Positions 15,838 through 18,980 of a stretch of 64,000 bases of DNA are shown piece by piece; within the stretch, counting starts at the first letter, position 1; the number at the start of each line of letters is the position of its first letter. The stretch spans positions 1-64,000 of the forward strand of contig JAFTVE010000038.1 in the NCBI GenBank assembly GCA_017465905.1, written 5' to 3'. The translations under genes were made by a program, and so were the position numbers. Origin of the DNA: Bacteroidaceae bacterium. Lineage in GTDB: Bacteria; Bacteroidota; Bacteroidia; Bacteroidales; Bacteroidaceae. The notes beneath the pieces are model-generated. The model saw nothing but the letters and a program-made list of their open reading frames with translations. It searched no databases and was not told the DNA's origin.

Positions 15838-15845
15838 TAACTTTG
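15838..15845 (+). promoter_or_regulatory. promoter (-7 box) of the aromatic amino acid leader
   Basis: TAACTTTG, with GTTAG about 19 bp upstream as a weak -33. It lies 28 bp ahead of a Phe/Tyr-rich leader peptide and 199 bp ahead of the structural gene, leaving a long transcribed leader. Confidence 0.6.
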
Positions 15846-15872
15846 CACCCAACAAAAGTGAATTTGTAAGCA

Positions 15873-15932
15873 ATGCGCAACTTTGGCTTTACATATTATA
15901 CCTATTTTTACTTTTACTTTAGCACGAAGTAG
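15873..15932 (+). CDS. Phe/Tyr-rich leader peptide
   Basis: An open frame of 19 codons, MRNFGFTYYTYFYFYFSTK then TAG. Five Phe and five Tyr codons make up 10 of 19 residues, nine of them between codons 6 and 16. It is too short for ordinary ORF calling. It starts 28 bp after a -7 box and lies directly upstream of an antiterminator/terminator pair and an aromatic biosynthesis gene, exactly the arrangement of ribosome-mediated attenuation of phe/tyr operons in other phyla. The stop codon overlaps the antiterminator strand (15932-15939). No purine-rich ribosome site is obvious, as is usual in this phylum. Translation is inferred. Confidence 0.75.
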   Translation: MRNFGFTYYTYFYFYFSTK

Positions 15933-16019
15933 AGCGGGATAGGTTATGTAGCAACAAATAGTTATGTAAGATATATTGTAAAAGATACACGCAAGTCCCG
16001 CTCAGCAATGGCGGGACTT
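15932..16019 (+). promoter_or_regulatory. attenuator: alternative antiterminator and terminator hairpins
   Basis: GAGCGGGA (15932-15939) is an exact complement of TCCCGCTC (15996-16003), the candidate antiterminator. AAGTCCCGC (15993-16001) is also an exact complement of GCGGGACTT (16011-16019), a 9-bp hairpin with a 9-nt loop. The two structures share 15996-16001 and are mutually exclusive. The terminator is followed by ACTTATTAAATATATA, which is AU-rich rather than a pure U-tract. A ribosome stalled at the Phe/Tyr codons would free the first strand; one reaching the stop codon would cover it. The hairpin ends 24 bp before the ATG, so blocking translation initiation is an alternative outcome. 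Confidence 0.7.
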
Positions 16020-16043
16020 ACTTATTAAATATATATAAGGATT

Positions 16044-18311
16044 ATGAACGAAGCAAGCAAGACATATGCGATACAGCCGGCACAGCGTCTCGAGTCGGTG
16101 AGCGAGTACTACTTCTCGCGAAAGCTCAAGGAGGTAGCTGCTATGAATGCAGCCGGCATGCAGGTGATAAGCTTAGGCGTAGGAAGCCCCGACATGCCAC
16201 CCTCGGAAGAGACCGTAGAGACACTCTGCACCGAGGCACACAACCCCGACGGACACGGCTATCAGCCCTATGTGGGCATACCCGAGTTGCGCGAGGCTTT
16301 TTCACGATTTTATAAGCGTTGGTACGGCGTGGAGCTCGATGCCAAGAGCGAGATACAGCCACTTATCGGTTCCAAGGAGGGTATACTGCACGTGACGTTG
16401 GCTTTCGTGAACCCAGGCGAACAGGTGCTCGTGCCCAATCCTGGCTACCCCACCTACACCTCGCTGAGCCGTCTGCTCGGTGCCGAGGTGGTGCACTACG
16501 ACCTCAAGGAGGAGAATGGATGGATGCCCGACTTCGATGCACTGGAGCGTATGGACCTCAGCCGTGTGAAGCTCATGTGGACCAACTATCCCAACATGCC
16601 CACCGGTGCCAATGCTACGCCCGAGCTGTATGAGCGCTTGGTCGACTTTGCCCGCCGCAAGGGCATCGTCATCGTCAACGACAACCCCTACAGCTTCATC
16701 CTCAACGACCATCCACTGAGCATCCTCTCCGTAGAGGGAGCCAAGGAGTGCTGCATCGAGTTCAACTCCATGAGCAAGAGCCACAACATGCCCGGATGGC
16801 GCATCGGCATGATAGCCGCCAACCCCACCTTCATCAGCTGGATACTCAAGGTAAAGAGCAATATCGATAGCGGTATGTACCGCGCCATGCAGCTGGCCGC
16901 CGTGAAAGCACTCGATGCCGAGGCCGACTGGTACGAAGGCAACAACGCCAACTACAGTGCACGCCGTAAGACGGCAGGAGCCATCATGGATGCCTTGGGC
17001 TGCACCTACGACGAGAACCAAGTGGGCATGTTCCTCTGGGGCCGCATCCCCGATCACTACACCGATGTGGAAGAGCTCACCGAGCGTGTACTGCACGAAG
17101 CCCGCGTATTCATCGTGCCCGGATTCATCTTCGGCAGTAACGGAAGCCGCTACATACGCATCTCGCTCTGTGCCAAAAACGACAAACTGGAAGAAGCGCT
17201 GAAGCGCATTCTTCAATTGACAAATGACAAATATCAAATTTTACGCCATATGGAACTAAAACCAATCAAACTCGCAGGCGTTGAGGACAAGCGTCCTCTC
17301 GTGATAGCAGGTCCGTGCAGTGCCGAGACCGAAGAACAAGTGATGAACACCGCCACCCAACTGGCCAAGAAGGGTGTCAAGATATTCCGTGCAGGCATCT
17401 GGAAGCCACGCACTAAGCCCGGTGGTTTCGAGGGTATCGGCACCGAAGGACTCGGATGGCTACAGCGCGTGAAGCGTGAAACTGGCATGTACGTGACTAC
17501 CGAGGTTGCCACTGCCAAGCATGTAGAGGAGGCCTTGAAGGCAGGCGTGGACATCCTGTGGATAGGTGCCCGCACCTCGGCCAACCCCTTTGCCATGCAA
17601 GAGATTGCCGACTCGCTGAAGGGAGTTGACGTGCCCGTATTTGTAAAGAACCCCGTGAACCCCGACCTCGAACTGTGGATTGGCGGCATGGAGCGTCTCA
17701 ACAATGCCGGTATCACACGCCTCGGCGCCATACACCGCGGATTCAGCACCTATGAGAAGAAGATTTACCGCAACCTGCCCCAATGGCACATCCCCCTCGA
17801 GCTGCGCCGCCGCTACCCCGACCTGCCCCTCCTGTGCGACCCCAGCCATATCGGCGGTAAGCGCGAGCTCATCGCTCCGCTCTGCCAGCAGGCCATGGAC
17901 CTCAACTTCGACGGTCTCATCATCGAGAGTCACTGCACCCCCGACAAGGCATGGAGCGACGCCTCGCAACAAGTTACTCCCGACTCACTCGAATACATCC
18001 TCGAGATGCTCGTCATCCGTGCAGAGACCCACAGCACCGAAGACCTAGGACAGCTGCGCAAGCTCATCGACGAGTGCGACGACAGCATCATACAGGAGCT
18101 CGCCAAGCGCATGCGTGTAGCCCGCGAGATTGGTCAGTTCAAGAAGGAACACGGTGTCACCGTATTCCAGAACACCCGCTACAACGAAATCCTCGAGCGC
18201 CGTGCCGCACAAGCCGTGCAGTGCGATATGAGTGGCGACTTCATGAAGAAGGTCTTCGAAGCCATCCACGAAGAGTCCGTACGCCAGCAGATGGAGATAT
18301 TGAACAAGTAA
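16044..18311 (+). CDS. aminotransferase fused to DAHP synthase/chorismate mutase
   Basis: 755 residues. Residues 1 to about 392 are a class I/II aminotransferase (PLP lysine Lys245 in SMSKSHNMPGW). Residues 403 to about 665 are a type I DAHP synthase starting at MELKPIK (GPCSAET, IWKPRTKPG, DPSHIGG). Residues about 668-750 are an AroQ chorismate mutase (LRKLIDECDDSI). In Bacteroidetes the DAHP synthase/mutase fusion is normal and the aminotransferase is typically a separate neighbour; here no stop codon separates them. The junction (17214-17240) is an AT-rich tandem repeat (QLTNDKYQILRH). An internal start at Met403 (17250) could still give a separate enzyme. It catalyses the first shikimate step, chorismate to prephenate, and an aromatic transamination. 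pheA and tyrA are not in the window. Confidence 0.88.
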   Translation: MNEASKTYAIQPAQRLESVSEYYFSRKLKEVAAMNAAGMQVISLGVGSPDMPPSEETVETLCTEAHNPDGHGYQPYVGIPELREAFSRFYKRWYGVELDAKSEIQPLIGSKEGILHVTLAFVNPGEQVLVPNPGYPTYTSLSRLLGAEVVHYDLKEENGWMPDFDALERMDLSRVKLMWTNYPNMPTGANATPELYERLVDFARRKGIVIVNDNPYSFILNDHPLSILSVEGAKECCIEFNSMSKSHNMPGWRIGMIAANPTFISWILKVKSNIDSGMYRAMQLAAVKALDAEADWYEGNNANYSARRKTAGAIMDALGCTYDENQVGMFLWGRIPDHYTDVEELTERVLHEARVFIVPGFIFGSNGSRYIRISLCAKNDKLEEALKRILQLTNDKYQILRHMELKPIKLAGVEDKRPLVIAGPCSAETEEQVMNTATQLAKKGVKIFRAGIWKPRTKPGGFEGIGTEGLGWLQRVKRETGMYVTTEVATAKHVEEALKAGVDILWIGARTSANPFAMQEIADSLKGVDVPVFVKNPVNPDLELWIGGMERLNNAGITRLGAIHRGFSTYEKKIYRNLPQWHIPLELRRRYPDLPLLCDPSHIGGKRELIAPLCQQAMDLNFDGLIIESHCTPDKAWSDASQQVTPDSLEYILEMLVIRAETHSTEDLGQLRKLIDECDDSIIQELAKRMRVAREIGQFKKEHGVTVFQNTRYNEILERRAAQAVQCDMSGDFMKKVFEAIHEESVRQQMEILNK
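17214..17240. repeat. AT-rich tandem repeat at the gene-fusion junction
   Basis: Units CAATTGA, CAAATGA, CAAATAT, CAAATTT occupy exactly the region between the aminotransferase end and the DAHP synthase start, in frame and without stop codons. Confidence 0.65.
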
Positions 18312-18635: not shown

Positions 18636-18980
18636 ATGGACCTGATTAGCATAATTAAATACTTGGACGACCCTCGTCGTGAGCAAGGGCGTATCCATTC
18701 TCTGGAGAGCATCATGTACATCTCGATTGCCGCAGTCATCGGTGGTGCCGAGAGTTGGAACGAGGTTGAGGAGTTCGGTCATCTGAAGGAGGACTTCTTC
18801 GCTTCTCGGATAAAGGGATTCTCCGGAGTCCCTTCTCACGACACCTTCAATCGAGTATTCAGCCTTCTTGACCCCATGCAGCTGGAACGCTGCTTTCGGT
18901 CATCCGGATGGAACATACAAGCGCCAGCGATGTATGCTTCGCGTTCTCTGCGGCCTCTGCGTGAAACAAAATCATTCTAA
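18636..18980 (+). pseudogene. truncated ISAs1-family transposase
   Basis: The first 88 or so residues match the start of ISAs1 (H-repeat-type) transposases: YLDDPRREQGRIHSLESIM, then GGAESWNEVEEFG and GVPSHDTFNRVFSLLDP. The DDE catalytic domain is entirely missing. At about 18900 the frame runs into unrelated repeat sequence (CGTTCTCTGCGGCCTCTGCG), the same intergenic repeat vocabulary as at 2238 and 3672. The element cannot be autonomous. Confidence 0.85.

What the first reader, a model, noticed from the sequence alone, without database searches (positions are those of the whole stretch)
15838..16043. Candidate Phe/Tyr ribosome-mediated attenuator in a Bacteroidetes aromatic operon
A 19-codon leader with ten aromatic residues (MRNFGFTYYTYFYFYFSTK) stands between a Bacteroidetes-type -7 box and a pair of mutually exclusive hairpins (GAGCGGGA/TCCCGCTC versus AAGTCCCGC/GCGGGACTT), upstream of DAHP synthase/chorismate mutase. 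The stop codon overlaps the antiterminator strand, so a ribosome stalled on Phe/Tyr codons versus one finishing at the stop would select opposite structures. Classical phe/tyr attenuators are described mostly in Proteobacteria. Response to both amino acids fits an enzyme that serves both branches.
Basis: partly seen in the sequence, partly recalled or inferred. Interest (0 to 1): 0.82.

Follow-up and report, generated by a model that had tools for sequence, protein, structure and literature searches.

The report
Phe/Tyr leader-peptide switch in Bacteroidia
A tiny reading frame packed with phenylalanine and tyrosine codons, followed by two RNA hairpins that cannot form together, sits in front of an aromatic amino-acid gene here and in most relatives checked, and is predicted to let a stalled ribosome turn that gene on when phenylalanine or tyrosine runs short; the kind of switch is known, but this one matches no entry of the RNA-family library, and in this lineage its hairpin lacks the run of U that normally stops transcription.

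Summary
The leader (15873-15932, 10 of 19 codons Phe/Tyr), the -7 box and the two exclusive hairpins are as described. Comparative tests support a leader-peptide attenuator. An F/Y-rich leader stands at 74 of 75 named Bacteroidales loci with enough upstream sequence (null 6 of 1300). An RNA model hits 211 of 301 family genomes and 56 of 295 of the order. Terminator and antiterminator helices covary, the latter with 53 double changes although the model did not contain it. The antiterminator strand is read in all three frames, yet stays 10-15 nt behind the last aromatic codon. Three lone pheA genes carry Phe-only runs. F/Y leaders also precede pheA in 20 of 24 genomes of other orders of the class. 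New here: in the window's lineage the hairpin has no U-run (9 of 9 loci, against 1 of 18 relatives), so the output step is uncertain. Prior art: a pheA 5' element without Rfam hit is reported in Flavobacteriaceae (PMC9723704).

The parts
15838..15845 (+). Bacteroidota-type -7 promoter box TAACTTTG
   Evidence: sequence; TAnnTTTG within 80 nt upstream of the leader ATG in 71 of 73 loci, 46 of 1460 shuffles. Start of transcription not mapped.
15873..15932 (+). leader ORF MRNFGFTYYTYFYFYFSTK* (10 of 19 Phe/Tyr)
   Evidence: conserved in relatives; null 6 of 1300
15912..15919 (+). segment 1 (TTTTACTT, last aromatic codons), pairs with 15927-15934
   Evidence: 1:2 helix, 95.8% of cells paired in 27 loci but no covariation beyond shuffles; 5 of 8 pairs with double changes in the 89-row alignment that was fitted to the model
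15927..15934 (+). partner of segment 1 (AAGTAGAG), overlaps segment 2
15932..15939 (+). segment 2 GAGCGGGA, antiterminator strand
   Evidence: 2:3 helix with 15996-16003; 8 cells with double changes in 27 loci, 53 in 89 rows
15996..16003 (+). segment 3 TCCCGCTC, shared by antiterminator and terminator hairpin
15993..16002 (+). 5' arm of hairpin 3:4 (AAGTCCCGCT)
16010..16019 (+). 3' arm of hairpin 3:4 (GGCGGGACTT)
   Evidence: 5 of 11 pairs with double changes in 27 loci
16020..16043 (+). tail without a U-run, 24 nt to the start codon
16044..18311 (+). regulated gene: aminotransferase - DAHP synthase - chorismate mutase in one frame
   Evidence: Pfam PF00155, PF00793, PF01817; a stop between the first two domains is present in nearest relatives L003, L004

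Best explanation
A 19-codon leader with ten Phe/Tyr codons and two mutually exclusive RNA hairpins stand before the aminotransferase-DAHP synthase-chorismate mutase gene, and a ribosome slowed by lack of charged tRNA-Phe or tRNA-Tyr is predicted to select the hairpin that lets the gene be expressed. SHOWN by sequence and comparison: the F/Y frame, the possible helices 1:2, 2:3 and 3:4, their conservation, and covariation of 2:3 and 3:4. INFERRED from geometry: a ribosome with the last Phe codon (15918-15920) in its A site would reach to about 15930-15931 (recalled footprint of +15/16 from the first P-site base), leaving segment 2 free to capture segment 3; a ribosome at the stop codon would reach about 15942 and cover segment 2, so that hairpin 3:4 forms. 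INFERRED and least certain here: hairpin 3:4 would cause premature end of transcription, as expected for relatives with a U-run; in this lineage the U-run is gone, so termination would be weak, or the hairpin acts in another way.
For: Leader frame in 28 of the 30 loci L002-L031 (L010, below the cut-off, added; L004 and L008 are cut by contig ends). In named loci 72 of 80 plus L167 and L176; 5 of the remaining 6 lack enough upstream sequence. RNA model R1 hits 211 of 301 family and 56 of 295 order genomes; without the 26 and 4 genomes that R1 was built from, 185 of 275 and 52 of 291. 57 of the 59 order matches have an F/Y leader. Covariation of 3:4 and of 2:3, which R1 does not contain (85.7% of cells paired against 36-50% for slid versions; 53 double changes against a shuffle mean of 21). 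AGCGGG-like element read in frames 1, 2 and 0 in 43, 19 and 7 of 69 leaders, while it lies 10-15 nt behind the last aromatic codon in 69 of 69, 13-14 nt in 60. Lone pheA in G054, G064 and G272 has Phe-only runs, and tyrA in G054 a 4F/6Y leader. Stepwise folds give 2:3 before arm 4 exists and 3:4 afterwards.
Against: No U-run behind the hairpin in 9 of 9 loci of the window's lineage. The 1:2 helix shows no covariation above shuffles in the first alignment. In 53 of the 69 leaders segment 2 lies inside the ORF, so the stop codon is not at a fixed place as it is in the window. One named locus with pheA and full upstream sequence, L223, has no leader, and 239 of 295 order genomes give no R1 hit. 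No transcript, ribosome-profiling or starvation data. The genome is 79.7% complete.
Confidence: 0.85

Rival explanations
1. The same ribosome-controlled switch, but its output in this lineage is translation or message stability, not termination: hairpin 3:4 hinders start of the aminotransferase, the 2:3 form frees it.
For: T-run 3 or less in 9 of 9 lineage loci against 5 or more in 17 of 18 relatives; in named loci run 2 in 5 of 5 (window included) against 4 or more in 59 of 61 parsed. Segment 2 and the hairpin core are identical in all nine. The title of a work on Bacteroides TPP riboswitches, seen only in a reference list, says that they regulate transcription or translation.
Against: The hairpin ends 24 nt before the ATG, a spacing like that in relatives with a U-run, so the start site is not directly hidden; no conserved pairing with the start region in RNAalifold of the nine loci.
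Confidence: 0.35
2. A decaying attenuator: pheA and tyrA have left the operon, the U-run has gone, and leader and hairpins are remnants.
For: pheA and tyrA on other contigs and without aromatic leader in G000; U-run lost.
Against: GAGCGGGA, TCCCGCTC and GCGGGA are identical in nine of nine species, while linker and tail drift; in G011 of the same lineage tyrA still follows the operon.
Confidence: 0.1
3. The short frame is chance in a T-rich stretch, and the hairpin is an ordinary upstream terminator.
For: The codons are T-rich.
Against: 72 of 80 loci against 6 of 1300 resamples; covarying second helix; fixed distance; amino-acid content follows the enzyme.
Confidence: 0.02
4. Another RNA sensor (T-box, riboswitch) or a protein-binding leader.
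For: Structured 5' region before an amino-acid gene.
Against: No Rfam family reaches its gathering score at the leader and at E 10 only a chance microRNA hit on the other strand appears; 13 relatives give only sub-threshold hits, several to proteobacterial peptide leaders; the conserved features include a reading frame.
Confidence: 0.03

Closest known systems
E. coli pheA leader / Rfam Phe_leader RF01859 (mechanism recalled)
   Same: Phe-rich short peptide, alternative hairpins, aromatic operon
   Different: No RF01859 match in the window at E 10; in 5 of 13 relatives 25.8-29.5 bits against gathering 55, and other leaders score as well or better (Thr_leader 35.8 in L007, Leu_leader 31.8 in L022). 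Here Phe and Tyr together; no U-run in this lineage.
Bacteroid-trp RF01692 (table entry in Weinberg 2010, PMC2864571, passages seen)
   Same: Listed as a probable cis-regulatory RNA of Bacteroidetes; by its name a trp element
   Different: No match in the window genome; 5 of 41 genomes searched have one at E 0.001, 3 over the cut-off. Different sequence.
Structured 5' element upstream of pheA in Flavobacterium psychrophilum and other Flavobacteriaceae (PMC9723704, section on 5' cis-regulatory RNAs read)
   Same: Same gene, transcribed, no Rfam hit; the authors report clues for leader-peptide attenuation upstream of amino-acid operons
   Different: That section gives no peptide, no amino-acid specificity and no Bacteroidales; its supplements could not be read here
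Multi-amino-acid leaders ilvGMEDA and thrABC of E. coli (recalled)
   Same: One leader senses more than one amino acid
   Different: Branched-chain and Thr/Ile, Proteobacteria

Membership tests
Ribosome-mediated transcription attenuator | short translated ORF rich in codons for the pathway's product | tested here: met
   10 of 19 F/Y, conserved; translation itself not tested
Ribosome-mediated transcription attenuator | mutually exclusive antiterminator and terminator hairpins | tested here: met
Ribosome-mediated transcription attenuator | control codons placed so that a stall exposes the antiterminator strand | tested here: met
   gap 10-15 nt in 69 of 69; 12 nt in the window
Ribosome-mediated transcription attenuator | intrinsic terminator with U-run | tested here: not met
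   window T-run 2; 9 of 9 lineage loci 3 or less; met in 17 of 18 other relatives and 59 of 61 parsed named loci at 4 or more. So the window copy is said to work like one and is not filed as a strict member.
Ribosome-mediated transcription attenuator | expression rises on starvation for the cognate amino acid | not testable with these tools
   no expression data
Rfam Phe_leader RF01859 | score at or above gathering (55 bits) | tested here: not met
Bacteroid-trp RF01692 | score at or above gathering (49 bits) | tested here: not met
   no match in the window or in its genome
T-box RF00230 | Rfam match | tested here: not met
   no match

The most novel reading that the evidence does not exclude
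One ancient Phe/Tyr leader-peptide switch governs the pheA-aminotransferase-DAHP synthase/chorismate mutase operon throughout the class Bacteroidia. It follows its genes when the operon splits, retuning its codons (Phe only before lone pheA), it is doubled in series in several Bacteroidales families, and in the window's lineage it has dropped the U-run and moved its output from transcription termination to another level.
Probability: 0.35. Interest if true: 0.75.

Novelty: new variant of a known kind. Interest (0 to 1): 0.6.

Why it matters
It gives Bacteroides and Prevotella relatives, abundant in the gut, a concrete sensor of phenylalanine and tyrosine, absent from Rfam, ahead of the entry enzyme of aromatic synthesis. 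[quoted passage not shown] The frame-free but distance-locked antiterminator strand, the codon retuning after operon splits, the tandem copies and the loss of the U-run make natural experiments on how attenuators evolve. The element can be tested in tractable species: leader-bearing loci here include Bacteroides fragilis (L149) and Phocaeicola vulgatus ATCC 8482 (L179).

Tried and rejected
Rfam at gathering and at E 10 and in 13 relatives at E 5: no family. NCBIfam on four leader peptides: nothing relevant. Chance: rejected by the null. Bacteroid-trp as the same element: rejected. A leader in the 330 nt before the window genome's pheA or tyrA: none found. A start-codon-hiding structure in the window's lineage: none in RNAalifold. 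A first measure of the U-run that let A-T pairs extend the stem gave a blurred picture, 32 of 100 loci below 5, so I re-measured from the GGG core (7 loci could not be parsed). A first measure of the distance to the last aromatic codon, limited to the best 12-residue window, gave 10-17 nt; one search uses the last aromatic codon anywhere before the element. Spread outside the class: 0 of 28 loci examined, out of 77 such genomes with a pheA match. The order-level count by the RNA model is a lower bound: of 18 stretches fetched from genomes without a hit, 7 show a clear F/Y leader, in 6 of them ahead of a located pheA; the other 11 show none or nothing clear, and not all of them need cover the right place. 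The 89-row alignment holds two antisense matches (L170, L171) that I dropped but that stay; its sources were 53 of the 56 loci L035-L090 (L075, L083 and L089 left out), 31 of the 80 named loci, and the window.

Full report
WHAT IS THERE. The next gene is a 755-aa frame with aminotransferase, DAHP synthase and chorismate mutase domains.

RELATIVES. 61 genomes were searched with the protein and loci L002-L031 were read. 28 of 30 have an F/Y-rich leader, directly before the aminotransferase in the window's lineage, and before pheA where the order is pheA-aminotransferase-DAHP synthase/chorismate mutase (L010). L004 and L008 are cut by contig ends. Of 80 named loci, 72 have an ATG-started leader in the 1400 nt searched. 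Of the 8 misses, L145, L153, L162, L183 and L203 lack enough upstream sequence, L167 has its leader further up, L176 has one with a GTG start, and L223 has none: 74 of 75. Named carriers include Bacteroides fragilis, B. xylanisolvens, Phocaeicola vulgatus ATCC 8482 and P. massiliensis. A first-order Markov null (ATG only, 1400 nt) gave 6 of 1300. A -7 box lies within 80 nt upstream in 71 of 73.

STRUCTURE. In 27 loci (alignment A1), hairpin 3:4 has 91.6% of cells paired and 5 of 11 pairs with changes on both sides. The antiterminator helix 2:3 has 92.6% paired and 3 of 8 pairs with double changes. Helix 1:2, between the last aromatic codons and the strand overlapping segment 2, is 95.8% paired but shows no covariation above shuffles. 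A covariance model R1 with 1:2 and 3:4 hit 211 of 301 genomes of the family and 56 of 295 of the order; leaving out the genomes it was built from, 185 of 275 and 52 of 291. Of the 59 order matches, 57 lie at an F/Y leader; L083 and L089 do not. In 89 matches aligned to R1, helix 2:3, which R1 does not contain, has 85.7% of cells paired (slid versions 36-50%) and 53 cells with double changes (shuffle mean 21, 0 of 500 as high). Shuffles do not remove relatedness, but the slid controls do keep it.

FRAME AND DISTANCE. An element of the pattern A(G/A)C(G/A)GG was found behind 69 of 73 leaders (not in L200, L201, L205, L220). It begins in frame 1, 2 or 0 relative to the leader ATG in 43, 19 and 7. 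It lies inside the ORF in 53, behind the stop in 15, and overlaps the stop in 1. The distance from the last aromatic codon before it is nevertheless 10-15 nt in all 69, and 13-14 nt in 60. So the peptide behind the aromatic run is free to change, and RNA sequence plus distance are kept. In the window the gap is 12 nt. With a recalled ribosome front of 15-16 nt from the first P-site base, a stall on codon 16 ends at 15930-15931, next to segment 2 (15932), and a ribosome at the stop covers segment 2. Folding gives the 2:3 helix while arm 4 is not yet made, and 3:4 once it is. The 3:4 helix is the more stable (-16.4 against -12.7 kcal/mol as bare helices), so timing matters, as in classical attenuation (recalled).

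SPECIFICITY. The 73 leaders scored (window and 72 named loci) have at least 3 F and 3 Y in a 12-residue run. Where pheA stands apart in G054, G064 and G272, its leader has a Phe-only run (two Tyr occur later, behind the run, in the last two). In G054 tyrA has its own leader, 4F and 6Y. Not every lone pheA has one: those of G177, G143 and the nine found in the window's lineage do not. In G000 pheA lies on C28 and tyrA on C5, both without an aromatic leader in 330 nt; in G011 of the same lineage tyrA still follows the operon.

THE CLASS. Among 24 pheA-bearing genomes of the same class but other orders, 20 have an F/Y leader within about 520 nt (misses L235, L266, L271 and L275). In 18 of 19 parsed, a hairpin with a T-rich tail and a competing strand follow the aromatic run, with sequences unlike those of Bacteroidales; L265 did not parse convincingly and L248 was not parsed. 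Some add Trp codons. 28 loci from outside the class show none. Common descent across the class is inferred from position and layout, not from a tree.

THE MISSING U-RUN. In the nine lineage loci the longest T-run behind the core is 2-3; in 17 of 18 relatives it is 5-9, L025 being the exception. In the named set, 5 of 5 (window included) have 2 against 4 or more in 59 of 61 parsed others; 7 did not parse. G143, where the aminotransferase is also first, keeps its run (L078), so loss of pheA from the front does not by itself explain it. The hairpin ends 24 nt before the start codon. I therefore say that the window copy works like an attenuator, and leave the output step open: weak termination, or another level.

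PRIOR ART. PMC9723704 (one section read) reports structured 5' elements, among them one upstream of pheA shared by Flavobacteriaceae genera and without Rfam hit, and clues for leader-peptide attenuation before amino-acid operons. PMC7366714 (passages) mentions short frames in long 5' UTRs of B. thetaiotaomicron, 'reminiscent of leader peptides'. PMC4833913 (passages) treats leader genes close to structural genes, Bacteroidetes included, not this element. PMC2864571 (passages) lists Bacteroid-trp, RF01692. PMC2965389 (passages) knows peptide leaders from Proteobacteria and Actinobacteria and adds Firmicutes; PMC3766115 (passages) suggests a gamma-proteobacterial origin. Ten full-text searches, judged by their listings, some of them capped, and by the papers named here, gave no description of a Phe/Tyr leader in Bacteroidales; only open-licence papers are held.

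VERDICT. A well-supported Phe/Tyr leader-peptide switch without an Rfam family, widespread in Bacteroidia, with an unusual U-run-less form in this lineage.

Noticed in passing
L041, L043, L058, L063, L065, L071, L073, L074, L075, L077: Two F/Y leaders in series before pheA, in six Bacteroidales families; in L041, L043, L065, L074 and L077 both carry a hairpin with a T-rich tail: tandem attenuators.
   Followed up: partly
window 16044-18311: Aminotransferase and DAHP synthase-chorismate mutase are one frame here; in nearest relatives L003 and L004 a TAA stands where the window has TAT. A real fusion or an assembly error in an incomplete genome.
   Followed up: partly
L081/L120 (G054), L084/L130 (G064), L126 (G272): Lone pheA genes with Phe-only leader runs; tyrA in G054 (L076/L136) with a 4F/6Y leader.
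   Followed up: partly
G005, G015, G017 (same genus): No RNA-model hit and only distant or partial matches to the fused protein; G005 and G017 also lack a prephenate dehydratase match. Possible loss of the pathway, or incomplete assemblies.
   Followed up: no
window 18636-18980: 114-aa frame that looks like the start of a transposase-associated protein (recalled resemblance, not searched).
   Followed up: no
class-level loci such as L254, L257, L260, L262: Leaders outside Bacteroidales also hold Trp codons in or near the aromatic run, which could add Trp sensing.
   Followed up: no
L090 (G042): Two model hits in series before a gene not identified here.
   Followed up: no
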